Shown piece by piece: positions 4,175-55,413 of a DNA stretch of 64,000 nt; the stretch's first letter is position 1; each line of letters begins with the position of its first letter. Position numbers and translations under genes: made by a program. The DNA lies in contig NC_033635.1 of assembly GCF_001540865.1 (NCBI RefSeq), positions 9,861,565 to 9,925,564 on the forward strand, read 5' to 3'. This DNA comes from Ananas comosus (Eukaryota; Streptophyta; Magnoliopsida; Poales; Bromeliaceae). Under the pieces are notes generated by a model. The model saw nothing but the letters and a program-made list of their open reading frames with translations. It was not told the DNA's origin and searched no databases.

Positions 4175-4465
4175 AAACATGACTACCTGCCCTTCCACGT
4201 TGACATATTTCGTATATGAAATAAGTCTTTTATCCTTCAAGCATTTGACCAGCGCTTTGAAGATCTCTTTTGCATTGTTCATCATGGTCTTCAAGAACTT
4301 CTTAAACATACATTGGTGGTTTTGTACATTATATTTCATTGTAAAATTTTTATGCTTTTTTTAAAAAAAAGTTTCCAAAGTTGTAGATATATATATAGGC
4401 CAGTAGTTGAACTATATATACAATTTCTAGTTTTAATCACAAAAGTCTCCTTTGCCGTTTAGGCC

Positions 4466-4752
4466 ACGTCTCATACTTTCTACACTTTGTCACTATTTCA
4501 GATAGAATAAAAGGAATAATTGGCCAATTATGCCGTAAAAGTTTACTAAAACAAAGTTGGCATATATATCACATTTTGCACATCCCAATATTTTATTAAC
4601 TATTGATGGTTTATTGAATAATTTTTGTTTAATTTTATATGATTTTAGTGTATCAGCTATAATTGACTTCATCTTTGAATTTGTTACCACAAAGTTGTAC
4701 AGATGAATTCAATTATTATCTCAAAATTTTGGACTTAATTACTTGAAATAAT
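4466..4752. repeat. Duplicated block, first copy (second at 8544-8833)
   Basis: The block begins ACGTCTCATACTTTCTACAC and ends ACTTGAAATAAT. It recurs almost unchanged at 8544-8833, 4,078 bp downstream in the same orientation. The first copy stops exactly at the N at 4753, whereas the second continues into unrelated sequence. It marks the left end of two tandemly placed copies of one locus. No coding function is seen. Confidence 0.85.
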
Positions 4753-4753
4753 N

Positions 4754-5095
4754 CGTGAAAAAATGAAATCATGGGACACCAAATTTCACATAATTCAATC
4801 ATGGAACACCAAGCGTGAAAGAGTGAAATCATGGGACACTAAAACGTGAAAGAGTGAAATCATGGTACACCAAATTTTTGGTGTCCTATGATTGAACTAT
4901 ATTTTTATTTTGGTGTCCTATGATTGAACTACGTTTTTATTTTGATATCTCATGATTGAACTATGTGAAATTTGGTGTCCCATGATTTCATTCTTTTACG
5001 CTTTTTGATGTCCCATGATTGAACTATGTAAAATTTGGTGTCTTATGATTTTACTTTTTCAGGCTTTAGTGTCCCTCCCAAAAGCTTCAAAAGGG
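4754..5095. repeat. Mirrored part of the AACCACAGGG foldback element
   Basis: Reversed without complement, this reads as the left half and centre of the foldback element found intact at 11990-12425, up to the base equivalent to 12330. In the window it looks like a separate foldback family with GGTGTCCC motifs. That appearance is caused by the reversal. Confidence 0.85.
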
Positions 5096-5816
5096 ATAAT
5101 AAATTGTAGATTAGCCTCATTCTCCAAGACTTAAGTTTAGTGAAGTCTGAAGATCATATTAGCTAAAGAAAGATAAATCAAATTAAGGTGTACTACCCAC
5201 ATAGTTTTTTAGAGCTCAAATGCACTCGCTCTCAGAATTGTTTTTTTAAGCCAAGCTCAGTACTGTCAGAGGATTGTATTAATTAAAGAAGGTTAAATCA
5301 GAACTCAGATTTGTTAGGCCTCTGGTTTACACTATCTTTCAAAATTTATTTTTTAAGTTTTTCAGAGACTCAAGCTCAGTACTCAGTGTAGTTCAAGGAT
5401 CGTATTAACTAAATAAAGGTAAATTAAGTTCAGCAGCTGCAATTTGTGAAAAAATGGTAAAATTTAAAAATTTCTTTAAAACAAAGCGTAATAAATTGTA
5501 ATAGTTACATATTAATTATAGTTAGATATAACAAAAATTGACAAATAGGGTAGTTTAAATTATACATTTTTCAAATAAATTATACTATCTCAAGAACTAC
5601 TAGTGAGGTAAAACTTTTTCTGTTTTAGTTCCCTTTGTAAAAGAATTACTTTACCATAAAAGAAAAAGGTCATGGTCTTTGTCAACGTACGTCTCGGATT
5701 GGGTGTAATTTATAAAGTTTTAGGTAGTCGTAGTCTTATAAGTGAATCGTTCCTCGTAGAATGGATTTCGTAAGGATGAATTAACATATGTAATTATATC
5801 CAAATCATACTAATTC

Positions 5817-7139
5817 ACAGCGCGGGGCCTAATGTGCAAAAGGCCAATGCAGCTGTTTAAGCGGCATATGTTTTTTAAAAAAGGACATATGCTTTGCTGT
5901 CGACATGGACATTTGGTATGTTATGATGTTTGTCATCATATCTCGATGATCTCATTTGTCTTCAATTTGTTTGCCTCAAGGTATATATATCAGGTTATTG
6001 TTTTTTTATGTCTCGATGAGCGTGACCGCTCAATTCATATGATACATGTACTTGGATTTTGTTTTGTAGATGAACGTCATCCCCGTGGAGATCGAGCCGT
6101 GCAGACCATCCCGATATTGAGCGCTGCGGGAACGGAGCTAGGACTAGACGCTGTCGTCGTCGGCTGCTGCTACCGAGACGTTTTTATCCCCCATTGTTGT
6201 CTCGCACTCTTGATGACATTTTTGTCCATCAGGAGTCACCCACGGCGGGAGTTGTTGAAGCCAGGTGGGTGATTCAGATGTCTTCCCTCATTTATATCAT
6301 CATTTACGTTCTTATTTTAGATGGCGATACCTAGTGATGTGATAGTACGAAATGTGATTGGTTGACATCTTTTACAGTTTAGACTGGGTTAGGTTAGCCC
6401 TGACATTCGAATGGGCAGGGACCCTGACACTTGTGTGGGCAGGGACGGGTCAACACTGATAGGTCGATGGAGGTGTGATGATCAGGCACCTCTCGTTCAA
6501 GTTGGCCGTACTCGCTGTGGTTGCGCTTTCGTGTCGTGGCCAGAGGCCTCACCGTGAGCACCCTCGATGGGTTGGTTCATACGTCATATAGAGACAGCTC
6601 GAGTTAGTCCGAAAGTTTTCGGTTTCAGTTTATTGGCTGAGTTTGACCAGATTGTTGTTTGTCCATTGCACGGGAGCCGTGTTAGGCTGCGGTTTATCCG
6701 CTATGCCCAGGTGGCAGTTGGGGCTGCCGTGGGTTGTTAGGTCTTGTCGAACTTGCGATGACATTTTTGTGTGAGCCGTAGGGTCGTGCTCGCATCGACT
6801 TTAGATTTGATAGACCCTATGAGTGATACTCCTATGACGTTGTCATATTTAATTATGTTGCCGGGGATCCCGATTTAGTCCATCAAATGTACACGGCTAG
6901 CAATAGCGCAAAAGAGGATTCAGTTTAGGTTCAGGTTGTACATATAAATCCCAAATGATTAGTACAAGAGTTTAGCCTAAAGTAATTCTATATTAGCTGC
7001 TTTAACTCGATGTGTACTATATGTTTTGACTTTTAGTATGTACAACTGATAATGCTATGAATCCTTATTTGGCTACATTGGGTGGAACGCTCGATTAGGG
7101 TCCGTCACTCCTTCAGGGCTTCGTTTCCTGTGATGTTAT
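5817..7139. mobile_element. Mirrored 3' portion of a long solo LTR
   Basis: Read backwards without complement, this is the 3' part of the LTR whose 5' part lies at 9020-11296. It ends GGGGCGCGACA, followed by CTTAA. The same five bases CTTAA precede the LTR start TGTGAGATCC at 9020, so both ends carry a 5-bp target-site duplication typical of LTR retrotransposons. The portion 5817 to about 6380 is absent from the normal copy, where the N at 11297 stands in its place. Confidence 0.85.
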
Positions 7140-7642
7140 TTTTGCGAGATATCGCTGTGAAAATTTACATCCATGTACAGTTTTTTCACGACGATCGATT
7201 TTAATGGCTGTGAAAATTTTTCACAACGATATACACCCCAGCGATCCATATATCACTGTCAATTTCTCACAGCGATATTGGATTTTCTCACGACGATTAA
7301 ATGGTTATGAATAAATTCGTAAATCGTTGGCGGCTTTGAGATAGAGCAACCGACGCCACCGCCTCCTCCTGCTGTCATTTCCGAGAAGCAAATCTTAAAG
7401 TCACTTAACTCACTTCTCTCTTCTTTTCTACCATTAACTAAAAAGAAAAAAAAAGAAAAGACAAACATTAGCCCGGTTTATCTGAGTCACACCACCCAAC
7501 TCATCTCATTAGAAAATAAAAACCAATCTAACCTGAAGTATAAATCCGTAATCATCTACACAAAAATTCAAAATCGTATTTACTCTATGAATGAATTTTC
7601 ACAGGGTTTATACACAGGGATATTAGATTAAGACAACATCAC
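7140..7642. mobile_element. Mirrored non-autonomous CACTA element
   Basis: Read backwards without complement, the element runs from CACTACAACAG to TTGTAGTG and matches the CACTA copy at 9934-10528 apart from the 80-bp duplication there. On the LTR side it has the same TCC flank as the normal copy. On the other side it abuts CTA and the leader of the ubiquitin-like gene instead of the LTR, so there is no target-site duplication. The join may be an assembly chimera through a repeated CACTA copy. Confidence 0.8.
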
Positions 7643-8022
7643 ATCCTTCGAAAGCCTCTCTCTTTATTGTCACTCATTTCATTTGCGGAGAGAAGCACCC
7701 CGGGTTAATGTGTTTTACACTCTAGGCATACTGGTTAAAGAGCCTTGCAGTGTTGATAAGAAGAAGAAAGAGTGATTCAGGAGAATAGAGACATTTAGGA
7801 GGGAGAAGAGCGATAAAAAAAAGGACACAGAGAGAGAGGGAGAGGGAGAGAGAGAGAGCCTCAACGACACCGGACACTATGAACTCAGCGACATTAACTA
7901 GATATTAATCCATGATTGATAATAATAATCTCACTAAATGTTACAAACGTACACTTGTAGTACTATAACGTTAACGACAATGAATTAACCAAATCAATAT
8001 GTATGTATATCCTTGCGACGTC
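7643..8022. promoter_or_regulatory. Mirrored leader of the ubiquitin-like gene
   Basis: Complementing this interval base by base, without reversing, gives CT-rich sequence (about 7760-7870) typical of plant 5' leaders. It then gives an AT-rich stretch ending in CGCTGCAG immediately before the ATG at 8023. CTGCAG followed by ATGG fits a 3' splice site of a 5'-UTR intron. This is inference from composition; no transcript evidence is available. Confidence 0.4.
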
Positions 8023-8340
8023 TACCGCCTTAGACATCATTTCGACGGTCCGAGACAGCAGTACCCTGGTCTTAAGCGGTCACTCTACCTCTAGTGCCAC
8101 GTCAGCCTGGTATGGCCGTTGATGCAAGAGGATCACATGCCGGTATTGTGATAACTCCTACACGACCAGCTCTAAGAGCCGGCGGCGTCCCGTCCCGTTC
8201 ACGGTTTCGGCGCCGAAAAGAAGTTACTGGATCTCAACGTCCTCGTCTTTTGGGACCGTCTGACGCCTTAGTTTGGGCCGAGGCACGACGTGGACTTCAC
8301 GTGCGTCGCCCACAACCGTGTTTGACTACTCATACTAATT
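8023..8340. CDS. Hidden ORF: ubiquitin-like-domain protein, 105 aa, in the mirrored segment
   Basis: The ORF appears only when the window is complemented base by base and read left to right, equivalent to restoring the string-reversed segment and reading its minus strand. From ATG (8023-8025) to TAA (8338-8340) it is 106 codons without a break. Residues about 22-93 look like a ubiquitin fold: MEITVQ opens it, RLFFNDLELQEQKTLADCGI and then KPGSVLHLKC align with the RLIF...LED..TL.DYNI....LHL region of ubiquitin. The C-terminus is QTDEYD, with no di-glycine, so it would not be a conjugated modifier. It may instead be a small UBL scaffold or adaptor, or the last exon of a longer protein. In the restored locus it lies just upstream of a CACTA element. 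Neither conventional strand applies, hence the dot. Confidence 0.7.
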
Positions 8341-8472
8341 CATTGAAATAAAACCAATACTAAAATCCGGGCCTAAATTTCTAGAATGGATTCTTACCTT
8401 CAAGTAAGAACAATTAAAATGACACTCGTAGTACAAACTTAAGTTTCATCGAAAAATATGAGAGGAAAGGCT

Positions 8473-8543
8473 AAAAACCACAGGGTACTAACTTGATACA
8501 CTTTAAACCACACGGTACTAAAGTGAGAAAAAAATAATTGGCA
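8473..8543. repeat. Right end of the first-copy AACCACAGGG foldback element
   Basis: Normal-orientation sequence AAAAACCACAGGGTAC onward matches 12332-12391 of the intact element. It is the direct continuation of the mirrored segment once that is string-reversed. It stops at ATAATTGGC, where the second copy of the duplicated block begins. Confidence 0.8.
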
Positions 8544-8833
8544 ACGTCTCATACTTTCTACACTTTGTCACTATTTCAGATAGAATAAAAGGAATAATTG
8601 GCGAATTATGCCGTAAAAGTTTACTAAAACAATTTGGCATATATATCACATTTTGCACATCCCAATATTTTATTAACTATTGATGGTTTATATATTGAAT
8701 AATTTTGTTAAATTTTATATGATTTTAATGTATCAAGCTATAATTGACTTCATCTTTGAATTTGTTACCACAAAGTTGTACAGATGAATTCAATTATTAT
8801 CTCAAAATTTTGGACTTAATTACTTGAAATAAT
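8544..8833. repeat. Duplicated block, second copy
   Basis: Near-identical to 4466-4752, with small indels near the centre (an extra TATAT). It continues without an N into 8834-9019, an AT-rich stretch with no recognised feature that ends in the CTTAA preceding the LTR. Confidence 0.85.
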
Positions 8834-9933: not shown

Positions 9934-10528
9934 CACTACAACAGAATTAGGTTATAGGGACACATGTTTGGGACACTTTTGAGTAAGTGTCCCATTTACG
10001 CTAAAACTTAAAAAAATATCTACTAATGCCTAAATATAAAGTCCAATCCAACCAAAAATAAAAGATTACTCTACTCAACCCACCACACCCAGTCCATTTG
10101 GCCCGATTACAAACAGAAAAGAAAAAAAAAAGAAAAATCAATTACCATCTTTTCTTCTCTCTTCACTCAATCCACTGAAATTCTAGACGAAGATCCTTTC
10201 TTGTCGTCCTCCTCCGCCACCGCAGCCAACAAGATAGAGTTTCGGCGGTTGCTAAATGCTTAAATAAGTGTTGGTAAATTAGCAGCATTTTTTTAGGTTA
10301 TAGCGACACTCTTTAACTGTCACTATATACCTAGCGACCCCACATATAGCAACNGTAAATTAGCAGCATTTTTTTAGGTTATAGCGACACTCTTTAACTG
10401 TCACTATATACCTAGCGACCCCACATATAGCAACACTTTTTAAAAGTGTCGGTAATTTTAGTTAGCAGCACTTTTTTGACATGTACCTATATTTAAAAGT
10501 GTCGCTATAGACCGTTTTTATTGTAGTG
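9934..10528 (+). mobile_element. Non-autonomous CACTA element, copy A, inside LTR-1
   Basis: The ends are CACTACAACAG and TTGTAGTG, flanked by the 3-bp target-site duplication TCC (9931-9933 and 10529-10531), as expected for CACTA (En/Spm) transposons. It carries no transposase. Related copies lie at 25196-25708, 32890-33403, 34838-35352 (inverted) and mirrored at 7140-7642. This copy is longer because it contains an 80-bp direct duplication around an N. Confidence 0.9.
10274..10434. repeat. 80-bp exact duplication flanking an N
   Basis: Bases 10274-10353 are repeated as 10355-10434, with the single N at 10354 between them. Other copies of the element have this sequence once. It looks like an unmerged contig overlap rather than biology. 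Confidence 0.85.
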
Positions 10529-11297
10529 TCCTTTGCTTCGGGACTTCCTCGCTGCCTGGGATTAGCTCGCGAGGTGGGTTATATCGGTTTATTCCTAAGT
10601 ATCGTAATAGTCAACATGTATGATTTTCAGTTTTGTATATCATGTGTAGCTCAATTTCGTCGATTATATCTTGATGAAATCCGATTTGAGAACATGATTA
10701 GTAAACCCTAAATATACATGTTGGACGTGGATTTGACTTAGGAGAAAACGCGATAACGATCGGCACATGTAAACTACCTGATTTAGCCCTAGGTGCCGTT
10801 GTATTAATTTATACTGTTGCAATATCCTCATAGTGAGTATCCCAGGTAGTTTAGATTTCAGCTACGCTCGTGCTGGGATGCCGAGTGTGTTTTTACAGTA
10901 GCGTTCAAGCTGTTCTGGATTGTTGGGTGCCGTCGGGGTTGACGGTGGACCCGTATCGCCTATTTGGCGTCGGATTGTGCCGAGGGCACGTTACCTGTTG
11001 GTTGTTAGACCAGTTTGAGTCGGTTATTTGACTTTGGCTTTTGAAAGCCTGATTGAGCTCGACAGAGATATACTGCATACTCGGTTGGGTAGCTCCCACG
11101 AGTGCCACTCCGGAGACGGGTGCTGTGCTTTCGCGTTGGTGTCGCTCATGCCGGTTGAACTTGCTCTCCACGGACTAGTAGTGTGGAGGTAGCTGGATAG
11201 TCACAACTGGGCAGGGACGGGTGTGTTCACAGTCCCAGGGACGGGTAAGCTTACAGTCCCGATTGGATTGGGTCTGTCACGCCCGGGTACCAGTGGN

Positions 11298-11989
11298 ACA
11301 ATTAAGTAGGAATGCTTTAGGTAAGATGCTCCTTGCTAAGTGAATATTCTGATGCTGATGGATTTTGAAATATTTAATGTGGGTTAGGCTCTGCATGCAA
11401 CTGTTTCTGGTACTGGAAAAAGAAAATACCATTTCATTAAGAAAATGTTTCCCTTGATTTTGTCTTTTTCAAAATGGAGTGATCATCAAGAACTCTATCA
11501 TATTAAATAAACTTTTTACATATTAAATTTGATGGGATAAACAGTTAAAAACAATATAGAATTAATATTAATTATACATTGATAATGTTAAATAATGCGA
11601 AACAAAATTTCTTTAAAAACTTAAAATGGTAAAAAAGGTGTTTAACGTCGACGACTTGAATTAAATGGAAATAAATCAATTATGTTAGGAACTTGGTGTG
11701 ACTCATGACTCGAACTCAGAGACTTTTTGAATTCTTTATTTAAAACTTTCTATCACATTTGGTCTCAGGATTATTTAGACTCAAGACTAAATTGGAAGAA
11801 ATTAGTTATGTTAGGAGACTGTCATGACTCGAACCGAATTTTTTTGTTAAGACTCTCGCTCACGTAAACTCGAGATTTTTTGATACACCCATCATGTGGA
11901 ATTAAACTAAATAGAAAGAAATCGATTATACTAGAAGTCTGAAGTGATTTGAATTCAGAACCTCTTACTCCGATTAGATGTTAAATAAT
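11298..11989. other. Unique flank of LTR-1
   Basis: The sequence right of the N continues the host sequence and is matched backwards by 5096-5786. It contains a loose repeat of GACTCGAACTCAGA- and TAAATGGAAGAAAT-like segments, with no coding potential recognised. Confidence 0.6.
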
Positions 11990-12425
11990 AGGGAAAACTT
12001 CGAAAACCCTCCCTGTGATTTCGGACTTTTTCATTTTAGTATCCTGTGGTTTAAAATGTATCAAGTTAGTACCCTGTAGTTTCGCATTTTCTTACTTTAG
12101 TACCCTGTGGTTTAAAGTGTATCAAGTTAGTACTCTATAGTTTTATTTTTGCATCAAGTTAGTATCCTGTGGTTTTATTTTTGTATCAAGTTAGTACCCT
12201 GTGGTTTTTAAACCACATGGTACTAAAGTGAGAAAGTGCGAAATCACAGGGTACTAAAGTGAGAAAGTGCGAAACCACAAGATACTAACTTGATACACTT
12301 TAAACCACAGGGTACTAAAGTAAAAAAGTGCAAAACCACAGTGTACTAACTTGATACACTTTAAACCACAGGGTACTAAAGTGAGAAAAAAATAAAACCA
12401 CAAGGAGAGTATTTGAAGTTTTTCC
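11990..12425. repeat. AACCACAGGG foldback element, copy 1
   Basis: The element starts AGGGAAAACTTC and ends with the inverted counterpart GAAGTTTTTCC. Both arms consist of alternating units TACCCTGTGGTTT and ATCAAGTTAG and their complements. Sister copies at 23622-24024 and 41396-41746 have exact 8-bp target-site duplications; here the flanks TAAATAAT and TAATTTAT agree only partly. There is no protein. An 8-bp duplication suggests mobilisation by a hAT transposase. Confidence 0.75.
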
Positions 12426-12459
12426 TAATTTATTTCGATGTTGGAACTTTCGAATTGAC

Positions 12460-19778: not shown

Positions 19779-20398
19779 TAGGGGTGGAACTGGGCCCGGG
19801 CCTAAACAAGGCCTGGCCCGATGGGCCATGTTTGGGCCGGGCATTGGGTATTAAAAATACAACTTTGGGTTCGGGCCGGGTTTAAAAATTTAGGCCCGAA
19901 AAAATTTTGGGCCTATTTGGGCATGTCCAAGCCCGACCCGAGCCCGACCTAAAAGCCCGATATATTAATTATCAAAATAAAATATTTAATTATATATATT
20001 ATTTATCTATAGTATATCATATATAGTATATATTGTTATTAATGATATGTACTTATATATATAAGGATATATTATATATTAACAAAATATTTAGTTCTAT
20101 TTTATGATATATTTGATGTTAGATATTAATTTCTTTGATGTGATAAAACTAAAAACAGGTATTTTATTTTAATTTTATACAAATAAAAGTATTTATGTAT
20201 TATATGATAAATGCATAAAATGGGCCTCCACAAAGCCCGATGGGTATTGGGCATTGGGCTTGGGCTTGGGCCGGGCCTTAATTTAAAAAAAATTGGATAA
20301 CAGCCCGACCCGAAGCCCAACATTTTTTTTTTGGGCCGGGCTTGGGCATAGTAATACTCGACCCAAGCCCGGCCCAGTTCCACCCCTATTTATAAGGG
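19779..20398. mobile_element. Non-autonomous hAT element with perfect 8-bp target-site duplication
   Basis: Starts TAGGGGTGGAACTGGGC and ends CCCAGTTCCACCCCTA, flanked by TTTATAAG at 19771-19778 and 20399-20406. Both ends carry GGGCCGGG- and CCCGACCC-type repeats and the middle is AT-rich. There is no transposase; the 85-codon minus frame is a by-product. Confidence 0.9.
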
Positions 20399-21385
20399 AT
20401 CCTAACAGCCTAATAGGTAAGTAGATGATTAGACTGAATCGGTTTATGATTGCTATCCTAATATAGCTAAAATATATCTCTAATTAGATTTTCAAATTAC
20501 AAACGAGATTAAATCTAGTCTAATTAGACGACATAATAACTATCAGATCGAGCCCAATCATGGACGCATCTGACTCGGTTTGACCTAATGGGAACATGCT
20601 GCATGGAATGGTTTTTGTCTACAAGAAATATAAAGCGAGAACAAACTATACGTACGTTCCAAAATGGAAAAGGTATGTACCTGGTGAGAGGGAGAGAAAG
20701 AAAAAGGTAGTTAGCTACCTACTTCCTTCGTTAAGAGAAACAAAGCAACAGGAGAGAAACACTTCCAAAGGGGGAAAAGGTTGGAAAAGAGAACAAAAAG
20801 AAGAAAGAGAAAGGGTGTAAAAAGAAAAGAATGAAGGAAAAGAGGAGTCTCGATTGCAACAGTTAGCGAGAGTGTTCGGCCCACAAATTTAACAATCCAT
20901 GAATACCTTAATTTTAGAACCTGTAATGGATTCTTCATGTTATAATCCAGTTGTTCTACACTTGTTATAGAGATAGAAATTGGTTTCATGCGTTATAACA
21001 GCCAAGTCCAGTTTCAACCTACATATACGATTTCATACCTGCAAGATTGATCATTTGCAAGTATTGATGTGATTGGTCGCATATTTGAAGAGTTGTTACA
21101 TATTTCAAACACAATAGTAATAGATAAGAAAAGTGGGAAAAAAAACATTTCGGAATTTTTTAAAAAACAGTTGGAAGAACAAAGATGTTAAAAGCAAATG
21201 CTTTCAATTAGCTAGGAAAACAAATTATTTCTGCAATTCGACCTTTAATATTTTCTACAGAGTACTATATAATTCTTATATGTATACACTCACAAACAGT
21301 TTTAAGGAATCATAAATGGCAACCATCATTGAATCTCTTTTTTCTTTTCTATTCGTTTTCCATTGAATATACACTTATCATAGAG
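20399..21385. other. Non-coding stretch
   Basis: Contains a purine-rich zone (about 20685-20850) that yields low-complexity frames on both strands. No gene recognised. Confidence 0.5.
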
Positions 21386-22083: not shown

Positions 22084-22660
22084 TCAATTCAAGATTAAAG
22101 TGTCTAGATCAAGTAATCCATCTCCATCATTAAACATCAAATTCCAATCAGTGAAGTCAGTGTCCATGTCCCAGAAGGACATGGATGATTCTGCCCACTC
22201 CATGCATTGAAGCTGCTGCTGCTGTTTCATCTCCTTAGCCTTATTATTTTCTAATATAGAATTTGAGGAAGCCACTGATGCTGAGCTAGAAGATGTTGAG
22301 TAACTGCAGGAAGAGGCAGCAGAAGCAGTACCGCAAGGGATGATGATCTCATGGGGTTCCATCATGGGCACTTCATCTGTGCAAAAATCATGAGCTGCTT
22401 TGCCGTCGACGAGTTCGCCGACATCCGCGGCGAGATCGAGCTGATCACCGCTTTCGTCCTTCCGGTCAGTTGCCGAAACCCTAACCGGTGGTTGCTGTTG
22501 GTGATCGTTGTGCACTCCTTCGCCACTCGAAGGAACTATAGGCTTGTGAGTGAGGGGGTCAATCCCCATTTTTCTCAGCTTTTTCTTGATGTGCGTGTTC
22601 CAGTGGTTCTTGATCTCGTTGTCGGTTCTACCCGGTAGGTAAGACGTTATTTTAGACCAT
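22084..22660 (-). CDS. MYB exon 3 (rest of R3 and C-terminal domain)
   Basis: The 3' splice site is CTCTTGCAG before A at 22660. That A completes the Arg88 codon and [10 protein letters not shown] follows. The stop TGA is at 22084-22086. A polyglutamine-like run (KQQQQLQ) and a serine-rich run lie in the activation region, followed by [14 protein letters not shown]. Confidence 0.93.
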
Positions 22661-25600
22661 CTGCAAGAGAAAGAGCAAGATTTGTAAGCATATAATCCTG
22701 CCTATTCAGCTCGAATTTTATAGGTCCCGTCAAGTCCCGTTTAGTCCGTATCAAAAGATTGGACCAGGACCACGAATATACACATATGTCAAATAATGCG
22801 AAATAATCATTTTTCTAAAAGCTTAAGCTAGTAGGCTGTGTTTGGTTCGGATATAAGTAAGAACCGCTTGTTCCAGTGATAGATACAAATTCAGGTATAA
22901 GGAGAAACTAGATCAATTTTACGTTTGGATGAAAATTGGGTTATTTCTAGGAATAAGGTAAATAGCGTTTGGATTGTTAGATTGGAACAAAAGGAATAAG
23001 AGTTATAATTTGATATTAAAATTATTTTATCTAATTAATTAACATCAAAATATTACTTAAAAATAAATAATAAATAAATTATTACTTGTGAGATCCCAGA
23101 TAGTCCTATATATGAGATATAATATGGCTAAACTCTTAACCCGGCTTAAGCATTTTGGGTGGTGGCAAGACCCAAGAGGTTAAGAGAGTTAAGCGTGCTA
23201 GGACGGGAGTAGTCCTAGGATGGGTGACCCCCTGGAAAGTTGGAGCGTCACATTACTAATTAATTATAAATAATAAATTAATAATAATATCTATTATCTA
23301 ATTATTAATTATTAATTATTAATAATATCGATTATCTAATTATTAATAATAATTATTAATAAATAATAATAATTATTAAAAATTACTAATAATTAATTAT
23401 AAATAATAAATTAATATTATTAATAACATATTATAAATAATAAATTAATATTATTAATAAGATATTATAAATAATAAATTAATAATAATATTGATTATCT
23501 AATTATTAAAAATAATAATTATTAAAAATTATTAATAATTAAGTATAAATAATAAATTAATTTAACTAATTTATTATTTAAGTAATAAATAAATATTTAA
23601 ATATGTTAATTAGATTAATTAAGGAAAAACTTCAAAAACCTCCCCTATGGTTTCACACTTTTTCATTTTAATACCATGTGGTTTAAAATGTATCAAGTTA
23701 GTACCCTGTGGTTTCTCACTTTATCATTTTAGTACCCTGTGGTTTAAAGTTTATCAAGTTAGTACCCTGTGGTTTTGCATTTTATCACTTTAGTACCCTG
23801 TGGTTTCACACGTTATCACTTTAGTATCCTGTGATTTAAAAAACCACAGGGTACTAAAGTGATAAAGTACAAAACCATAGGGTACTAACTTGATACACTT
23901 TAAACCACGGGGTACTAAAGTGATAAAGTGAGAAACCACAGGGTACTAACTTGATACATTTTAAACCACAGGGTACTAAAGTGAAAAAAATTGAAACCAC
24001 AAGGGGGGTTTTTGAAGTTTTCCCATTAATTAACGATTCACTATTAGTAAAATTAAATTTAGATTTTAATTAACCTTGTTCTTATATATCCTGGAACAAG
24101 TTTGTTCTAGAAAAAGGGTGGAACAACAATTCTAGCCTTATGGCAGCTTATTCCATGAATCCGGAAATTACTATTTCCGGAAACCAAACACGACGTTTGG
24201 GAACAATGGGGGAAACAAGGGCTTATTCCCCCGCTTGTTTCTGAACCAAACGCTACCGTAAAGAATGATGTTTGCTAAATTAAATGAAACAATCGTTATA
24301 CTTTAAAGTTTAAGCTGATAGTGAACGCTGTTATATAAAACACTTTCCGTCACGTCTGGACTTGAGACTTTGCAAGATTCATTATGCGGTCTTGATTTAA
24401 ATGGAAGAAAATATTGTGTTTTGGAGACAATTTTTTTAGCACAAAGGTCATCGTTAAAAGCGAATAATAATTAGGGACTAAGCTTATTGTTTGTGGAACT
24501 TCGTTTTCAAGGGAACACTTTGTACCACGCCCTTAAAACCAAGTCGTTCAATCTTTTTCTCTAGTAAAGATCAAAACACTTCATTTTCAAGGGGTGCTCA
24601 ATAGTCTAAAGTATTTCACTTTTGGTTCGCCGAAAATGAAGCATAAAAAATGGCACTTATAGAAAGCGACGTTTTATAGATTGTTTGGTTTGTGAAAATA
24701 AATATGTAAGTTATTTTACGAAAGTGGATTGATAAATAAGTTCTAACTAAATTTTACTTTTTTTACTTCGACTCAAAAAATTTGAAAGTCACCGAAAGTG
24801 GAGAGCTAAGTTAAGAAGTTATATTTCATCTTAAATTTAATATTTGAATTTATTTTTAAAGTTGAAATTCACTTTAAATTTGAATTAAAACGATGATCAC
24901 ATTCTGAATTTTATTTGTAATTAATTCAACATAAAATTTTAAATTCAAATTTATGACTTTATATTTAAATTTTATTTTTTATTTTTATTTAAATTTGAAT
25001 TCTAGAATTTAAATTAATATTTAAATTTAAATTTTAAAATTTAAATTTTAATCAAATTATTTTTATCTAAGAACGTCAATTTGAACTTTGAATTCAAATT
25101 GTTCCAACTATAAATTCAAATTATTGGTTGAAATTTGAATTTAAAATTTAAACTTTTAGGTTCAAATTCAAATTCAAATTTAAATATACTATTTACACTA
25201 CAACAGAATTAGGTTATAGGGACACATGTTTGGGACACTTTTGAGTAAGTGTCCCATTTATGCTAAAACTTAAAAAAATATCTACTTATGCCTAAATATA
25301 AAGCCCAATCCAACCAAAAATAAAAGATTACTCTACTCAACCCACCACACCCAGTCCATTTGACCCGATTACAAACATAAAAGAAAAAAAAAGAAAAATC
25401 AATTACAATCTTTTCTTCTCTCTTCACTCAATCCACTGAAATTCTAGACGAAGAGCCTTTCCTGTCGTCCTCTTCCGCCACCGCAGCCAACGAGATAGAG
25501 TTTCGGTGGTTGCTAAATGCTTAAATAAGTGTTGGTAAATTAGCAGCACTCTTTTAGGTTATAGCGACACTCTTTAACTGTCACTATATACCTAGCGACC

Positions 25601-27752
25601 CCATATATAGCAACACTTTTTAAAAGTGTCGGTAATTTTAGCTAGCAGCACTTTTTTGACATGTACCCACATTTAAAAGTGTCGCTATAGACCATTTTTG
25701 TTGTAGTGAATTACATTTAATTTCAATAACGAGTTTCAATTTGAATTTGAATTCGAATAATGAATTCAAATGTTCGATTCGAATTGTGATTTAAATTCAA
25801 ATTTAAATTTAAATTTAAATATTAATTTAAATTGAGAATCCATATTTGAATTTAGAGTTTAAAATCAAATTGAAACTCGGATTTAAGTTTAAATTTAAAT
25901 TTTAAAATATAATTTTGAATTCTAAATATAAATTTAAATTGAAAATTATATTTTAAACTGTGAGTATAAGTCCCTTGTTTATATTTTCATATCTTTATGT
26001 ATAATTTAATAATTAAAATTACAAAATATTCTTTAATTTTTCACTTTATAATCAATCAAACAATCGAACTCGAAAGTCATTTTTATAAAAGTGACTTTTT
26101 TCACTTCATTTACTTTTGAGCAACCAAATATGCCCTTAGTGGGGGCTAGAATTATATGAGGAGTATTATTGTGTTATTAATTACTAATAAAAATTTGATG
26201 TTAGAGTACTAATTAATATGTACCTTAATTAGTATTTATAACATAATTTAGCAATTTAAAATATATAACGAGAAATCATTACGGTTTTAACGCTATAGAG
26301 GTAAAAAGAGTTGGACCATTGTTTGTGCGGCCTAAAAACTTATAGGGTCAATTGCATACAGGTCCCTACAAATATAGTGAAGGGACCTACAGTTTAAAGT
26401 TCAAAACTTCTGGTACAATTTATTATGTTCAACAGTGCTGATCGTCGATTCGAAGGTTTTATCATCGAAAATAAATCGATAGCAACAGAGCTCGTTTGCT
26501 ACGTGTGCGTGGATATATCAAATGAGCTCCGTTGCTATCGATTTATTTTTTATGATAAAGCCTCTGAATCCAGGATCAACATTGTTGGATATGATTTAGA
26601 AGATTTAAAGTGTTTAGAAATCAAATTTTATATTTTTTTGACATTGTTCTCTTGTACATTAATTAGGTGAATGTAAATATGAAACAGCTAAAATGAATAT
26701 CCTTCAAAAATTAATAATAGAATTTTTGTATTAAAGATCAAGGATATAAATATTGTTTTAAATAGTTTAAAAAAGTTTCTAACAAAAATTCAATTGATTT
26801 CAATTTTTTACACTGTAGCGATCATTAAAATTATAGAATTTTGTGATCCGTCCTGTGATCATTAGGACAATGGTGTCGAAAATACAAAAAATTTAATTTC
26901 TTGTTACTTTAAGTAGTCTAGATCATATTCAATAGTATCGATCATTGATTTGAAAGCTCTATCATAAAAAATAAATCAGTAGTAACGAAATTCGTTTGCT
27001 ATCGGCAGCATTCCAGCTCAACTCTCTCTCTATACATTTATAACGTTAAAATTTCGAATTGAAAAGTTCAAGTCGTATTTGGCTTTTATTTATTAAACGA
27101 GCGATCTATTTTGAGCTCATTCCAGGCCAAACTCACAAACAGCAAGTTGGCAATTACTTTATAATGCATGCATTGTATATAGGAATGTCACTAGGTTGGA
27201 TTCGGGGCGAATTCTTAATTAAAAACCCGAACCTCAATCCGACTACAAAATCTGAAACCCAAACCCAAAAATTCGAACCCCAAACAAGGCTGAAATACTA
27301 TTAATAGCACCAATGACTTGGTGCTATTAAGTTTTCCGCCCTTGGATTTAAAAATGTGCGGTTAGGATGATGTGAACCCCCTAGGATTGAGTGGGTGGTT
27401 GGTTGAATAGTATAATCTAACGGGTAAAAATAATCAAAGGGATTAATCTAACGGCAGAAAACTTGATAGCACTAACTACTTGGTGCTATCGATAGCATAG
27501 CAGTCGGACTCTATAGAACTAGGCTGAAATACTATTAATAGCACCAATGACTTGGTGCTATTAAATTTTCCGCCCTTGGATTAAAAAATGTGCGGTTAGG
27601 ATGATGTGGACCCTCTAGGGTTGAGTGGGTGGTTGGTTGAATAATATAATTTAACAGATAAAAATAATCAAAGGGGTTAATCTAACGGCAGAAAACTGCA
27701 GAAAACTTGATAGCACTAACTACTTGGTGCTATCGATAGCATAGCAATTGGA

Positions 27753-27807
<55 letters not shown>

Positions 27808-30106
27808 ATTTTTGGTTTGGGTCGGGTTTGGGTTGGGTTTGGGTTGGGTTCAGATTCGTACCAGATACAATCAAAATTCATACCCAAAATCACATCTGTC
27901 TGATTTATGCTTTTGATATCTATATCCGAATATATATTTACTATCGGGTAAATCTTGTCGGATCGTTGGCACTAACGATTAATCTCAAAAGCTCGAACTG
28001 TTAAAAATACACAATCAATTCACTTAAAGCTTATAGATACAACGCCCACGGGTCTCGATTGCGACTCAGCCTAACCAACCTCACGCAATTTTGAACATGA
28101 CTCGGTCCAACATGGTCCCCCGCCACAAAATAGAATACTGATCCATTTAAGCAAACAAATCCACTCCATTCGAATTCGAATTTTGATAAAATTTCAGGTA
28201 TCCATGTCCCCTGCCATATTTCTGTACATAGGTACAACATGTGTGTAGAGATCTAGGAAGAGAGTACCTGTTCCCGAGACGAGAATGGAGATCAATAACC
28301 AACTTTTCTTCGGAGTCAGACAGCAAACCCCTCTTTATATCTGGCCTCAGATAATTCGTCCATCTTAGCCTGCAGCTCTTTCCGCACCTCAACAAACCTA
28401 CACCATGCATGCAACATATATATCTCCGATAAACGAAAAAAGCACTACAAAAACATTAATATTTAAGGATATTTTTTTTATTTAATAATACTTAAAAGTG
28501 TTTTAAAATAGTCTAGCGTCGTATACGAAAGCGTCGGTTAAAGCGTGGCACATAATATATATATATTTAAGAGGCAATTTCATGACTACTATTGTAAAAT
28601 TTAAAAATATCATAGATACCCTTCAAAATTTTGAAATATTATCCATACCCTGTCAAACTTCATAAACTATCATGAATACCCTTCCATCACCCTCTATTTG
28701 TTTTTGTAAATTTTTATAAGATAAAATGACTTTTCTACCCCTAATTGTTGGTGAGTAAAAGTGTGTGGAGACCCCTCACCTATTCTATTTTAAAATAGAC
28801 CCTTTCAACTTTTTTTTTTATTAAGGCCTCTTAAGCTTTTAGTTTTTTTATTAGGTTTTTGCATGTAGTAAACTTTCTTAGCCGAGATATCTCATTCATT
28901 AATTTACTAATTTTTTTTAAAAAAAATTGGCTAATAAAAATCACTCAATTGTAAAAAGAAAATAAAATTGAGAAGGTGTAAATAAAAAAAATTAAAATTA
29001 AAGGGATTGTTCAAATGGCCTATAGGTGAAAGAAATTTTACGCACTTTTATTTTATTGTAGAAAATACATTTTATATGAATGTCAATTGATACTATCAAG
29101 AATTTTGGCTATCTAATTTTTTTTTTGTGTAATGTTTGTAAATTATTATATTTAAATAGAATTAATAAATAATTAACTCTTGAGGTAACATGAATATTAA
29201 TATTGACAGTTATATATTATGATAAACTATATAATTTCATAGCGAAAAAATTAAAAAGGAGCATTTTATATTTAGTAAATTATAAATATTTTATTAAAAA
29301 TTTTAAAAAGTAAAATTTAGTTAATATACAGTTCAAAATTTAGAACCAATCATTTAAATAACTTTAAATTTTTATACTTTGTTAAATTAATATTAAGGGC
29401 AAAAATGTCATTTAAAAAATAATGGATGATGTTTTTCATGGATTTTTTACCTAAAGGGCATTCATGAGTATTTTCAATATTTAGAGGGGTATTGATGATA
29501 TTTTCAATTTTAGAGGGGCATCTATAATATAATGACCTCCAAGAAGGGTACTGGTGAAATTTTCCCTATATTTAAAGAGTCGCCACGCATATATAAGTGG
29601 CGGTAAAATATATTCTGATGGTTTAAAGCGTCAGGATTTTTCAAAACTTTTTAAAATTCTGACGCTTCAAAGCGTCAAAAATTAAAAATAATAATAAAAT
29701 TTATCATTTAATAAATTGGTTTGAACAATAGATGACTTATATGATGACGTTTTTTAAAGCGTCGGTATTTGCGCCATTTGCTATAATATTATAGAGAAGC
29801 TTGGGAACGCTTTCGTCAAGCGTCGTTTAAAATACATTCTTATATTGATATTTTCTTATACTGTAGTATGAAAAAAAAAAAAAATCAGTTTTTTAGAATT
29901 TTTTTCAAATTTTATGAAAAACTAGTGTTTTTGTTTTTAAAAAAAAGAAAGTGAAACCAAAAACTCTCGTTTTTCGGGAAATCTGGGAAAAAAAAAACAG
30001 ATTTTTCTAAAAAAAAAACTATTTTTTTTAAAAAACAAACGAGCAGAAATGAATAAATTATTAAATTATAAGTTAATTTATTAATTAAATGTACATTATA
30101 GAGAGT

Positions 30107-31080: not shown

Positions 31081-31271
31081 GTGTGTGTGTGTGTGTGGGT
31101 ATGTAATGATATATATATATATATATAAATATATATACCTGCTAGCTTGGGAACAGCTCTCCAAGAAGAGGGAGCATGTGTGAGCATGAAGTGGACCAAC
31201 TTCTTGTCCTCTTCAAGTGTCCATGGCCCCTTCTTCAACCCCACCTTCTCACAACATGGTCTCCTTCCCAT
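22084..31271 (-). CDS. R2R3-MYB transcription factor, 279 aa, three exons
   Basis: Coding exons are 31139-31271, 28268-28397 and 22084-22660 (133, 130 and 577 nt), joined in frame to 279 residues. The protein begins [12 protein letters not shown]2 has tryptophans at 17, 37 and 57; R3 has leucine in the first position, as usual in plants, then W89 and W108. The redox-type cysteines C49 and C53 of LLRCGKSCR are present. The domain ends in [20 protein letters not shown], typical of the group with Petunia ODORANT1 and Arabidopsis MYB20/42/43/85, which regulate phenylpropanoid and secondary-wall genes. Assignment to that group is by pattern only. The C-terminal part is serine-rich, then acidic (residues about 250-279). 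The 133/130-nt exon sizes and intron phases are canonical. Introns of 2,741 and 5,607 bp are unusually long and full of transposons, yet all splice sites are GT-AG. Confidence 0.93.
23097..23252 (+). mobile_element. Cassandra solo LTR with 5S rRNA core and 5-bp target-site duplication
   Basis: Starts TGTGAGATCC and ends GCGTCACA, flanked by TTACT at 23092-23096 and 23253-23257. It contains GTTAAGCGTGCTAGG and TAGTCCTAGGATGGGTGACC, which match the box A to box C internal promoter region of plant 5S rRNA almost base for base. It is a solo LTR and not a 5S gene, since the 5' half of 5S is absent. Confidence 0.9.
23253..23621. repeat. AT-only low-complexity tract
   Basis: Repeated TTATTAATAAT and AATAATAAATT words with almost no G or C. 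It is probably the expanded core of the surrounding element. Confidence 0.7.
23622..24024. repeat. AACCACAGGG foldback element, copy 2, with 8-bp target-site duplication
   Basis: Starts AGGAAAAACTTC and ends GAAGTTTTCCC, flanked by ATTAATTA at 23614-23621 and 24025-24032. The arms are TACCCTGTGGTTT and ATCAAGTTAG units facing their complements. Confidence 0.85.
24640..26130. repeat. AT-rich element of AAATTTAAATT and GAATTCAAATT words, with nested CACTA
   Basis: Long runs of TTTAAATTTAAATTC-like words on both sides of the CACTA copy at 25196-25708. The outer parts (TTGTTTGGTTTGTG near 24685; AACCAAATATGCCC near 26124) look like inverted MITE ends. Non-coding, within MYB intron 2. Confidence 0.5.
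25196..25708 (+). mobile_element. Non-autonomous CACTA element, copy B (MYB intron 2)
   Basis: Ends CACTACAACAG and TTGTAGTG, 513 bp, clearly the same family as 9934-10528 without its duplication. The 3-bp flanks (TTA and AAT) do not match, so the insertion site was altered. Confidence 0.85.
26425..27025. mobile_element. MITE of the TCATCGAAAATAA family plus an inverted end fragment
   Basis: GAGCTCCGTTGCTATCGATT (26523-26542) faces a preceding inverted piece (ATAAATCGATAGCAACAGAG, about 26471-26490). The main copy then runs to the CAGCTCAAC end near 27020. The 81-codon plus frame at 26425 is a by-product. Confidence 0.5.
27182..27950. mobile_element. hAT-like element split by a tandem pair of MITEs
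   Basis: The left part (about 27182-27287) has GGAATGTCACTAGG and CCCGAACC-type repeats and the right part (about 27810-27950) GGGTCGGGTTTGGGTTG repeats. Between them sit two direct copies of a MITE (27288-27525 and 27529-27752). Each opens with AATAGCACCAA, three bases, then TTGGTGCTATT, and ends with GATAGCACT...GTGCTATC. Both contain TGTGCGGTTAGGATGATGTG. Confidence 0.55.
27754..27807. repeat. (CT)n then (TA)n microsatellite
   Basis: A CT run of about 35 bases followed by TA repeats, in MYB intron 2. Confidence 0.85.
28268..28397 (-). CDS. MYB exon 2 (end of R2, start of R3)
   Basis: 130 nt. The acceptor is GTGTAG before GT TTG TTG, completing Gly45 and encoding LLRCGKSCR. The donor is AACAG followed by GTACTC, splitting Arg88. 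Confidence 0.95.
28443..29868. mobile_element. CACTA-like element interrupted by a second element
   Basis: Starts CACTACAAAAACATTAATAT; the right end is a decayed TACTGTAGTA. Interior motifs (TACTTAAAAGTGTTTTAAAAT, GCGTCGGT, TTTAAAGCGTCAG) recur at 42868-43255. About 28570-29575 is an insertion: its ends GATACCCTTCAAAATTTTG and GAGGGGCATCTATAATAT are roughly inverted, and its sister is unknown. Confidence 0.5.
29869..30530. other. Homopolymer-rich MYB intron sequence
   Basis: A- and T-runs with AAAAAACAAACGAGCAGAAATG, reminiscent of the TTTGGTT-type MITE ends at 40490-40800 and 59020-59320. No bounded element. Confidence 0.4.
30531..30855. repeat. Two MITE fragments in MYB intron 1
   Basis: AGTCCGACTGCTATAC and TCGTTTTCGATGATAG (30531-30640) belong to the TCATCGAAAATAA family. 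TCACCGTTAAATTTACTC and GCATCACTGACTTTGTGCTG (30690-30845) are an inverted fragment of the GTGCGGTTAGGATGATGTG family. Confidence 0.5.
30900..31127. repeat. (CT)n, (AT)n and (GT)n microsatellites next to MYB exon 1
   Basis: CT run 30900-30944, AT run about 31046-31078, GT run 31081-31098 and TA run about 31110-31126. The last lies about 10 bases inside the 5' splice site of intron 1. Confidence 0.85.
31139..31271 (-). CDS. MYB exon 1 (N-terminus and most of R2)
   Basis: The start ATG at 31269-31271 is chosen because it gives the conserved [18 protein letters not shown] longer in-frame start at 31331 would add 20 residues not found in the family. The exon is 133 nt, the canonical length, and ends in the first base of Gly45. 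Confidence 0.95.
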
Positions 31272-32889: not shown

Positions 32890-33403
32890 CACTACAACAG
32901 AATTAGATTATAGGGACACATGTTTGGGACACTTTTGTGTAAGTGTCTCATTTATGCGAAAACTTTTAAAAAAATCCACTAAAGTCTAAATATAAAGTCT
33001 AATACAACAAAAAATAAAAAGTTACTCTACTCAACCCACCCCACCCAGCCCATTCAGCCCAATTACAAATAGAAAGGAAAAAGAAAAGAAAAATCGATTA
33101 CGATTTCCCCTTCTCCCCTCATTCAATCGATTGAAATTCTAGACGAAAATCCCTTTCTCTCGTCCTCCTCCGCCACCGCAGCCAACGAGATAGAGTTCCA
33201 GCGGTTGCTAAATGACTAAATAAATATTGGTAAATTAGCAGCACTTTTTTAGGTTATAGCGACACTCTTTAACTGTCACTATATACCTAGCGACCCCACA
33301 TATAGCAACACTTTTTAAAAGTGTCGGTTATTTAGCCAGCAACATTTTTTTTGGCCTGTACCGACATTTAAAAGTATCGCTATAGACCGTTTTTGTTGTA
33401 GTG
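32890..33403 (+). mobile_element. Non-autonomous CACTA element, copy C
   Basis: CACTACAACAG to TTGTAGTG with target-site duplication TTT (32887-32889 and 33404-33406). 514 bp, non-coding. Confidence 0.9.
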
Positions 33404-33579
33404 TTTGAATGGTTCAAACCGCTTTTTCTGACTTATCCGGCTCAAAAAAGTTAAACTCAATAGTACCAAGAATTTGATACAATCGATAATATAGTAGCCG
33501 GCCGGACTCTATATGAATTATACTATTATACTATTAACAATACCAAACGCTTCGTATAAATAAATAAATAAATAAATAT

Positions 33580-34607: not shown

Positions 34608-35430
34608 AGTCCGACTATGATACTTGTAAAAATACCAAGCACTTGGTACTTGTAAATTTTTTACCGTTAGATCTACGCCTTTGATCATTTTAACCCATTA
34701 GATTATACTATTCAACCAACCACCCACTCAACCCTAAGGGGTCTATATCATCCTAACCGCATATTCCTTAATTCAGGAGCCGAAAACTTACAAGTATCAA
34801 TGACTTAATACTTTTAAAAATATAAAAACTCAATCCTCACTACAACAAAAACGGTCTATAGCAACACTTTTAAATGTAGATATATGTCAAAAAAGTGCTG
34901 CTAGCTAAAATTACCGACACTTTTAAAAAGTGTTGCTATATGTGGGGTCGCTAGGTATATAGTGACAGTTAAAGAGTGTCGCTATAACCTAAAAGAGTGC
35001 TACTAATTTACCAACAATTTATTTAAGCATTTAGCAACCGCCGAAACTCTATCTCGTTGGTTGCGGTGGCCGAGGAGGACGACAGGAATGGCTCTTCGTC
35101 TAGAATTTCAGTGGATTGAGTGAAGAGAGAAGAAAATATGGTAATTAATTTTTCTTTTTTTTTTCCTTTCTGTTTGTAATCGGGCCAAATGGACTGGGTG
35201 TGGTGGGTTGAGTAGAGTAATCTTTTATTTTTGGTTGAATTGGGCTTTATATTTAGTCATTAGTAGATGTTTCTTTAAGTTTTAGCATAAATAGGACACT
35301 TACTAAAAAGTGTCCCAAACATGTGTCCCTATAACCTAATTCTATTGTAGTGCCTATATATAGAGTCCGACTATGATACTTATAAAAGTATCAAGCACGT
35401 GGTACTTCTAAATTTTTTACGTGGTTGACA
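34608..35430. mobile_element. GAGTCCGACTATGATACTT MITE split by CACTA copy D
   Basis: The left part 34608-34837 begins GAGTCCGACTATGATACTTG and contains CACCCACTCAACCCTA, the complement of the motif in 27288-27752. After the CACTA element, GAGTCCGACTATGATACTTA starts again at 35363 with a CACGTGGTACTT palindrome. These are two overlapping or tandem MITE copies. Confidence 0.55.
34838..35352 (-). mobile_element. Non-autonomous CACTA element, copy D (inverted)
   Basis: On the plus strand it reads CACTACAACAAAAACGGTC to TTCTATTGTAGTG. The interior is the complement of copies A-C. Target-site duplication CCT at 34835-34837 and 35353-35355. Confidence 0.9.
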
Positions 35431-51838: not shown

Positions 51839-51978
51839 GACGTGAAGTGTTAGGACTGCTCCCGTTCTAACACGCTTAACTCTCTTAACCTTTTGAATCT
51901 ACCCACCCCCCCAAAATGGTTAAGCTAAGAGTTTTAACTATATTATATCTTATATATAAAACTATCTGAGGTCTGACA
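51839..51978 (-). mobile_element. Cassandra LTR fragment with 5S core (minus strand)
   Basis: On the minus strand it starts TGTCAGACCTC and contains GAGAGTTAAGCGTGTTAGAA then CGGGAGCAGTCCTA, the 5S-derived part. It is truncated before the GGATGGGTGACC box C region. A run of seven or more C/G interrupts it near 51905. Confidence 0.75.
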
Positions 51979-53851: not shown

Positions 53852-54224
53852 TAGGTAAAAATATAGAAAACTTACCTAAATTATGAACCATTTTGAATCA
53901 GCTATCTAATTTTTCAAAATTTTGATTTTACTATCCAATATTTCAATTTGTTTAATTTTAATCAATCAACGGTATTTTGACCTAAAAATTTAAGTTAATT
54001 ATTTAGTTTAATTAATTGATATATAGTTGCGAGAATTATATGAAGTATACTGACTAAATATGTAAAGATAAATAATACATTTAAATTTTGAAATCAAAGT
54101 GCCTACTGATTCAAATCAAACAAATTGCAAGATAAGATAATAAATCAAAATTTTGAAAGGCTGAATAACTAAATTAAAAACGATTCAGAGTTCATATAAG
54201 TTCTTTAGGTTTTACCTATTTTTA
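53852..54224. mobile_element. MITE, copy 2 of the CATTTTGAATTAACTATTCG family
   Basis: AGGTAAAAATATAGAAAACT to AGTTCTTTAGGTTTTACCT, inverted. It has the same internal order as 52613-52958. Confidence 0.6.
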
Positions 54225-54515
54225 AACACGGACACATTTCTAAATTTATTGTGTTATTCCCCTCCTAAATCTAATTGAGGATTTGTTAAAACTAACATGT
54301 TCATTAACTAGATCATAGATGAGATGCACAATTATTTTTGCTTTTGGTTCATACGATTGTACATGACGCATAATTTTTTTTTTTCCTTTTTTCCCCTCCT
54401 TTTTTTTCTCCTTTGTTTAATTACTACTAATTGTTTCCTCATAAATATATATGTATATAAGTGATTTATTAGTATGTCTTAAGTCTTATAGTACAAAAAG
54501 AATATTGGTATTGGT
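54225..54515. other. AT-rich non-coding stretch
   Basis: Nothing recognised. Confidence 0.5.
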
Positions 54516-54765
54516 ATTTAAAATAGTAAAAAGCTATAGTAAACGGATCACTAGCTTACCCGAGTTTTAGTTGTTTAAAGTTACTGGCATCACTCGGCAA
54601 ACGTTCAAAATATATCATATTTCTTAAAAGATAGTTTTAAAGTGCACTAAACGTATAAAGATGTAGCAATTTGAACGTTTGCAGAGTGATGCCGGTAACT
54701 TTAAATAACTAAAACTCGGGTAAGCTAGTGATCCGTTTACTATAGCTTTTTATTATTTTAAATAA
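54516..54765. repeat. Long near-perfect hairpin (about 93-bp arms)
   Basis: The left arm (54516-54608), including AAAAGCTATAGTAAACGGAT and CACTAGCTTACCCGAGTTTT, pairs with 54670-54765 (GGGTAAGCTAGTGATCCGTT and following) with few mismatches. The loop is about 60 bases. It is a foldback MITE; if transcribed it could feed a small-RNA pathway. Confidence 0.75.
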
Positions 54766-55025
54766 AAGATCCATAAGGTTTATGAGATCTAGTTCAAATT
54801 GCCTCGGCTAGCTGCTAAGCTTTCAGCGTTGTAGTTTTTGCTCGACTTTCGTGCCTTCCGAGGCATGAAGGCTATCGTATCATCGGAGTGAGAGAGGGAT
54901 ATATATATATATATATATATATAATAACACGATGTATAAATATATGAAAGCTAGAGCTTATTTATTAATTCAATATTTATCTCTCTTACTTATGCGCATG
55001 CATCACGTAAAAGGTTATGGTTGNA

Positions 55026-55410: not shown

Positions 55411-55413
55411 AAT

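What the first reader, a model, noticed from the sequence alone, without database searches (positions are those of the whole stretch)
4754..8472. A 3.7-kb segment is string-reversed without complement
Letter reversal of this interval reproduces window sequence in normal orientation: 6489-6508 equals 11150-11169 reversed, and 4754-5786 pairs with 12330-11298 at constant coordinate sum. A CACTA element, a long LTR, its flank and a foldback element all appear this way. String-reversed in place, the segment runs smoothly into 8473. DNA inversion always complements, so no known rearrangement explains it. The likely cause is data or assembly handling. Any annotation of these bases as they stand is wrong.
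Basis: seen in the sequence. Interest (0 to 1): 0.95.

Follow-up and report, generated by a model that had tools for sequence, protein, structure and literature searches.

The report
Backwards-written patch in plant assembly
A 3.7-kb stretch of what looks like pineapple DNA was written back to front in the assembly without swapping to the other strand, which no known biology does, so it is a data error that hides a gene, and a second, shorter patch in the same window suggests the error was not a one-off.

Summary
Confirmed, and an artefact. Reversed without complementing, 4754-8472 aligns to normal window sequence at 98% over two blocks of about 1 kb and to four CACTA copies (one on the minus strand) at 87-95%; as written it finds only itself and short repeat matches. 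Only plain reversal, not complement or reverse complement, makes the join at 8472/8473 continuous. Two further findings: (i) the plain-complement reading of 8023-8337 encodes a complete 105-aa ubiquitin-like protein, 77% identical to a pineapple protein over its full length, so the error reaches past the DNA matches and hides a gene. (ii) A second patch, 54511-54908 and probably on to 55023, is reversed in the same way. Each patch lies against or just short of a lone N on one side (4753; 55024) and ordinary sequence on the other. Likely cause: contig-end extension or gap filling wrote the added string in the wrong direction and left the gap open. The host is Ananas comosus or a very close relative. 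The program, the raw reads and the genome-wide frequency could not be examined. Biological inversion is effectively excluded.

The parts
4754..8472 (.). Patch 1: segment written in plain-reversed (uncomplemented) order
   Evidence: aligns to normal window sequence only after plain reversal or plain complement; join at 8472/8473 continuous only after plain reversal
4753..4753 (.). Lone N (unclosed contig join) exactly at the left edge of patch 1
8473..8537 (.). Start of the normally oriented contig; continues the foldback element that ends (restored) at 4754
   Evidence: restored join aligns as one piece to 12033-12395, 96.7%
4754..5105 (.). Foldback-type repeat inside patch 1, readable after plain reversal (relatives at 11981-12435, 23609-24034, 55406-55854)
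5817..7074 (.). LTR-like sequence inside patch 1, homologous by plain complement to 47839-48806 (5817-6813) and 49174-49397 (6856-7074); 'LTR' is my reading of the repeat, not a call's label
7129..7644 (.). Short non-autonomous CACTA element inside patch 1, plain-reversed
   Evidence: CACTACAA...TTGTAGTG termini appear after reversal; four normal copies in the window
8023..8337 (.). Coding sequence of a 105-aa ubiquitin-like protein, read left to right on the plain complement
   Evidence: PF00240, E 1.8e-7, above cut-off; 77% identity over full length to P0001; best match of P0001 in the window as written has E 0.42
9934..12331 (+). Normally oriented counterpart of patch 1, itself broken by lone Ns at 10354 and 11297
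54511..55023 (.). Patch 2: second plain-reversed stretch, shown for 54511-54908 and inferred to run to 55023; left edge between 54213 and 54511
   Evidence: 54214-55023 gives 0 matches as written and 0 as reverse complement, but 7 by plain reversal and 7 by plain complement, e.g. 37224-37454 (75%) and 45158-45343 (85%)
55024..55024 (.). Lone N at the right edge of patch 2; a copia reverse-transcriptase fragment reads up to it from the right in normal orientation
   Evidence: 'copia' is recognised from recall, not from a call

Best explanation
An assembly artefact. Real genomic DNA was appended to a contig end at an unclosed gap, but the added string was written in the wrong direction on the same strand (reversed, not complemented). 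For patch 1 the contig beginning at 8473 was extended leftwards; its true extension R was emitted as reverse(R), and the gap to the left contig stayed open as one N at 4753. For patch 2 the contig ending near 54.2-54.5 kb was extended rightwards and the gap stayed open as N 55024. One fault gives both patches: for example, bases collected while walking outwards from a contig end and printed in walking order (patch 2 then lying on a contig placed on the minus strand), or a read that should have been reverse-complemented being only complemented. Shown: plain reversal, the join of patch 1, the Ns, the hidden gene. Inferred: the extension/gap-filling step and the form of the fault (about 0.75). 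Unknown: which program.
For: Plain reversal (or its mirror, plain complement, for minus-strand relatives) restores homology and nothing else does. At 8472/8473, self-matches left out, 12 alignments span the join when reversed and 0 for as-is, complement and reverse complement. The 105-aa ubiquitin-like frame exists only on the plain complement. Composition agrees: with the counterpart left out of training, 14 of 14 windows starting 4501-7751 score as reversed, against 35 of 232 outside both patches; with all detectable relatives of the patches masked from training the whole segment scores -8.4, below all 138 overlapping outside windows of that size (mean 19.8, minimum 1.2). A second patch has the same defect. 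Both patches lie next to lone Ns, which are only 9 of 64,000 bases. Patch and counterpart differ mainly by substitutions, 42 of 52 of them transitions (14 mismatches and 5 gap columns in 1031 aligned bases; 16 and 0 in 920; 22 and 1 in 419), so the inserted DNA is accurate sequence of an allele or paralogue, not noise or raw long-read sequence. Contig ends here overlap without being merged: 4462-4752 repeats at 8540-8833 (95.9%) and 80 bp are exactly repeated across N 10354.
Against: No raw reads, assembly graph or other pineapple assembly could be examined; the own-genome search did not complete. The program is not identified and no published report of such a fault was found in eight searches of the held library, of which asked about the fault itself. 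Patch 2 rests on more diverged repeat matches (69-85%), its homology stops at 54908, 115 bases before the end at 55023, and its composition is not decisive. The two-state model found one reversed block (4748-8251) but was trained with the patch's counterpart and other relatives in it, and did not call patch 2; retrained with all relatives masked it called no reversed block at all, subparts of patch 1 scored only -0.1 to -2.5, and patch 2 (-3.9) was within the outside range (minimum -7.2). CpG tests were inconclusive. The left edge of patch 1 has no continuity with 4752 in any orientation, as expected for an open gap but not a positive proof.
Confidence: 0.92

Rival explanations
1. The reversal happened after assembly, in record editing, file conversion or preparation of this window, and has nothing to do with gap filling.
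For: A text-level reversal is all that is needed; the assembly record itself could not be compared.
Against: Both patches lie at assembly gaps (N 4753, N 55024), and patch 1 ends at a point where the true sequence is continuous, inside a repeat, where contigs often end. A later editing slip has no reason to respect contig structure twice.
Confidence: 0.07
2. A real rearrangement put the segment into the chromosome in non-complemented reverse order.
For: Only that the letters stand so in the window.
Against: Strands are antiparallel and polymerases copy 5' to 3' (established knowledge), so inversion always complements. The segment shows high identity to several independent elements and an open ubiquitin-like frame only when plain-reversed or plain-complemented, and both cases lie at assembly gaps.
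Confidence: 0.003
3. The resemblance is chance or comes from palindromic and low-complexity repeats.
For: AT-rich tracts give weak reversed self-matches, up to 69.8 bits.
Against: 1770 and 1588 bits, the second over sequence that is not a foldback, against at most 38.3 bits in 100 shuffles, and a full-length protein homologue.
Confidence: 0.005

Closest known systems
Ordinary misassembly at gaps (wrongly oriented contig, false haplotype duplication, unmerged contig overlaps)
   Same: Located at contig joins marked by N; duplicated contig ends nearby (4462-4752 with 8540-8833; 80 bp across N 10354)
   Different: An ordinary mis-oriented contig is reverse-complemented; here the letters are reversed without complement, which no biological or ordinary joining step produces
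Outward contig extension by gap fillers (e.g. [quoted passage not shown] passages of PMC3446322 seen)
   Same: Additions lie at contig edges and gaps can stay open, as here
   Different: No evidence that this or any named program was used on this assembly or has such a fault; a 3.7-kb addition is long for short-read gap filling (my judgement)
CACTA (En/Spm) DNA transposons, non-autonomous (family recognised from recall)
   Same: Restored termini CACTACAA...TTGTAGTG; four normal copies in the window, three of them with 3-bp flanking repeats (TCC, TTT, AGG)
   Different: The copy in the patch lacks matching 3-bp flanks (CTA against TCC), so the patch may be chimeric, or recombined, at the element's left end

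Membership tests
Plain (uncomplemented) reversal artefact | Homology restored by reversing letters, not by reverse complement | tested here: met
Plain (uncomplemented) reversal artefact | Boundary continuous with flank only after plain reversal | tested here: met
   at 8472/8473: 12 spanning alignments against 0, 0, 0; left edge is an N and not informative; not tested for patch 2
Plain (uncomplemented) reversal artefact | Native reads contradict the written order | not testable with these tools
   No raw reads held
Contig-extension / gap-filling fault | Patch abuts an assembly gap on its outer side | tested here: met
   Patch 1: exactly, N 4753. Patch 2: homology ends at 54908, short of N 55024
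Contig-extension / gap-filling fault | Pipeline of the source assembly used such a step | not tested
   Source assembly not identified; three pineapple genome papers looked up by recalled DOI were not held. MD2 v2 used LR_GapCloser (passages of PMC8774480), but its long contigs fit 9 gaps in 64 kb badly
Biological inversion | Inverted segment is the reverse complement | tested here: not met
   All 25 reverse-complement matches are the segment's own foldback part or (AG)n tracts
Ubiquitin-like protein (PF00240) | Profile score above the curated cut-off | tested here: met
   31.2 bits against 25.4 for the plain-complement frame
CACTA element | CACTA termini and 3-bp target-site duplication | tested here: inconclusive
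   Termini met in 5 of 5 copies; 3-bp duplication in 3 of 5, not in the patch copy nor at 25194

The most novel reading that the evidence does not exclude
The fault is systematic: many gap-adjacent extensions in this pineapple assembly, and perhaps in other genomes made with the same software, are written reversed without complement, hiding genes and TEs and creating spurious 'unique' sequence that all homology-based checks silently ignore.
Probability: 0.5. Interest if true: 0.5.

Novelty: not a real feature. Interest (0 to 1): 0.3.

Why it matters
As biology it is nothing. As a data-quality finding it is useful: such patches look like lineage-specific unique DNA, break genes (a ubiquitin-like gene here), and are missed by aligners that test only the two real strands. 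Screening an assembly against its own plain-reversed letters is a cheap test that found two patches in 64 kb.

Tried and rejected
CpG/GpC ratios and CpG context of transitions as an orientation test: inconclusive. The two-state composition model called 4748-8251 reversed, but relatives of the patch were in its training set; with them masked it called nothing, so I rest no boundary on it. Other low-scoring composition windows (e.g. 51501-52250, 20251-20750) show no plain-reverse homology in the window among the printed rows and I do not claim them. Looking for a database protein predicted from the as-written letters (5838-6269): 11 candidates, none at E <= 0.001. Literature on the fault: searches found 0, 0, 2, 0 and 49 papers; I saw listings only (2 of 2 and 15 of 49), and no listed title concerns this. 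Searches (21 papers, 15 listed; 0) sought pineapple assembly methods and (2) single-N joins. Papers seen in passages only: PMC8774480, PMC8824783, PMC3446322, PMC4076250. Three papers were not held.

I considered raw long-read sequence as the source of the patch and rejected it, because it differs from its counterpart mainly by substitutions. I considered 'complemented, not reversed' at the same place and rejected it for patch 1, because the complement does not continue into 8473.

Full report
WHAT WAS CLAIMED AND WHETHER IT IS THERE. The claim is that 4754-8472 is reversed as a string, without complement. I compared the segment with the window in four forms, plus strand only, E up to 1e-3 (at most 25 rows printed per form). 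As written it finds itself and eight short repeat or low-complexity matches. As reverse complement all 25 matches are its own foldback part or (AG)n tracts. Reversed without complement (41 matches) it finds 11298-12331 (98.2%, 1036 columns, 1770 bits), 10355-11274 (98.3%, 920 columns, no gaps, 1588 bits), 9934-10353 (94.5%), 25194-25708 (94.6%), 32890-33404 (87.2%) and foldback elements at 55.4-55.8 and 23.6-24.0 kb. Complemented without reversal (55 matches) it finds the minus-strand relatives, 34838-35352 (93.0%) and an LTR-like stretch at 47839-48806 (70.5%). The named 20-mer is exact.

CONTROLS. 100 dinucleotide-preserving shuffles of the segment reach at most 38.3 bits. The plain reverse of 14 other chunks of the window (8473-60538, both patches masked, low-complexity filter on) reaches at most 69.8 bits, and that hit is AT-rich simple sequence at 70%. 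In the whole-window comparison against its own plain reverse, 60 alignments pass 1e-10; all 52 of at least 60 columns, the ones printed, involve either 4754-8472 or 54511-54908.

THE JOIN. Reversing the patch in place makes its end continue into 8473: one alignment of 366 columns at 96.7% to 12033-12395. Leaving out the stretch's match to itself, twelve alignments span the join after plain reversal and none for as-is, complement or reverse complement. So the fault is reversal on the same strand. The left edge is a lone N at 4753 and is continuous with 4752 in no form.

A HIDDEN GENE. The left end of the restored patch (828 bp) has no DNA relative in the window, so it needed separate evidence. 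Read on the plain complement, 8023-8337 is an open frame of 105 codons from ATG to a stop. It passes Pfam PF00240 ubiquitin (31.2 bits, cut-off 25.4) and matches a 104-aa ubiquitin-like protein of Ananas comosus var. bracteatus at 77% over its full length, E 2.6e-43. The window as written gives that protein no match better than E 0.42. DNA homology and this frame together cover 3176 of 3719 bases; the remainder lies between or beside covered parts.

COMPOSITION. A 5-mer model trained without the patch and its counterpart scores 14 of 14 windows starting 4501-7751 as reversed, against 35 of 232 windows outside both patches. A 6-mer two-state model gave one reversed block, 4748-8251, but relatives of the patch were in its training set. 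With every detectable relative masked, the whole segment scores -8.4, below all 138 overlapping outside windows of its size (mean 19.8, minimum 1.2), but its subparts score only -0.1 to -2.5 and the two-state path calls no reversed block. So composition agrees with the homology but does not by itself place the edges.

A SECOND PATCH. 54511-54908 shows the same defect. The stretch 54214-55023 gives no match as written and none as reverse complement, but seven by plain reversal and seven by plain complement, among them 37224-37454 (75%), 45158-45343 (85%) and 51397-51560 (75%). It lies just left of the lone N at 55024; the last 115 bases before that N have no informative match. Sequence up to 54213 has normal forward and reverse-complement relatives at 52.6-52.9 kb. 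Against it: the matches are diverged repeats, and its composition is not decisive (-7.9 for 54300-55023, below 163 outside windows, but -3.9 against an outside minimum of -7.2 with relatives masked).

WHAT THE INSERTED DNA IS. It is accurate genomic sequence: against its counterpart it shows 14 mismatches and 5 gap columns in 1031 aligned bases, 16 and 0 in 920, and 22 and 1 in 419, with 42 of the 52 mismatches transitions. It even contains 597 bp (window 5787-6383) that the counterpart lacks at its own N 11297. The CACTA copy in it lacks matching 3-bp flanks, while the counterpart has TCC on both sides, so the patch may be chimeric or recombined at that repeat.

MECHANISM. Both patches have a lone N on their outer side and a normal contig on the inner side. 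That is what results if a contig end is extended into a gap, the added bases are printed in the wrong direction, and the gap is not closed. Printing a leftward walk in walking order, or only complementing a read that needed reverse complementing, both give exactly this. GapFiller, for one, adds one nucleotide at a time from each gap edge (passages of PMC3446322), and SSPACE-LongRead writes one or more N between contigs (passages of PMC4076250); nothing links either program to this assembly. Contig ends in the window overlap unmerged: 4462-4752 with 8540-8833 at 95.9%, 80 bp exactly across N 10354, and 50 bp near N 59422.

SOURCE. A MYB20/ODORANT1-like gene on the minus strand matches an Ananas comosus protein at 44/44 and 190/192 residues in two exons, so the window is pineapple or a very close relative. 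That record's contig is 128,808 bases; that this size fits the older MD-2 draft is my recollection, supported only by the scaffold N50 of 0.15 Mb for MD2 in PMC8824783 (passages). The two residue differences, one of them at an exon edge, mean the window need not be the same record. The later MD2 v2 assembly was gap-filled with LR_GapCloser (passages of PMC8774480), but nine gaps in 64 kb fit its long contigs badly. The own-genome search did not complete, so the genome-wide frequency is unknown.

VERDICT. It is not a biological feature; its worth is as a warning and as a simple screen for other assemblies. On re-checking, the composition evidence proved weaker than first written; for that I lowered the main confidence from 0.93 to 0.92 and raised the post-assembly rival from 0.06 to 0.07, and left all other scores as they were.

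Noticed in passing
54511-55023: Second plain-reversed patch, just left of the lone N at 55024; a repeat of a family with copies at 37.2, 45.2, 47.7, 51.4 and 63.8 kb among others.
   Followed up: yes
4462-4752 and 8540-8833: Direct repeat at 95.9% of the left contig's end on the far side of the patch: probably two alleles or unmerged contig ends placed in tandem.
   Followed up: partly
10274-10434: 80 bp repeated exactly on both sides of the lone N at 10354, as two contigs overlapping by 80 bp and not merged.
   Followed up: partly
11297: Lone N where the restored patch has 597 bp more (LTR-like): one N does not reflect the true gap size.
   Followed up: partly
31140-31271, about 28260-28440, 22087-22662 (minus strand): MYB20/ODORANT1-like transcription factor gene with long introns; two exons near-identical to an Ananas comosus protein whose model appears to lack part of the middle exon.
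   Followed up: partly
58876-58925 and 59431-59480: 50-bp near-exact direct repeat on either side of the lone N at 59422.
   Followed up: no
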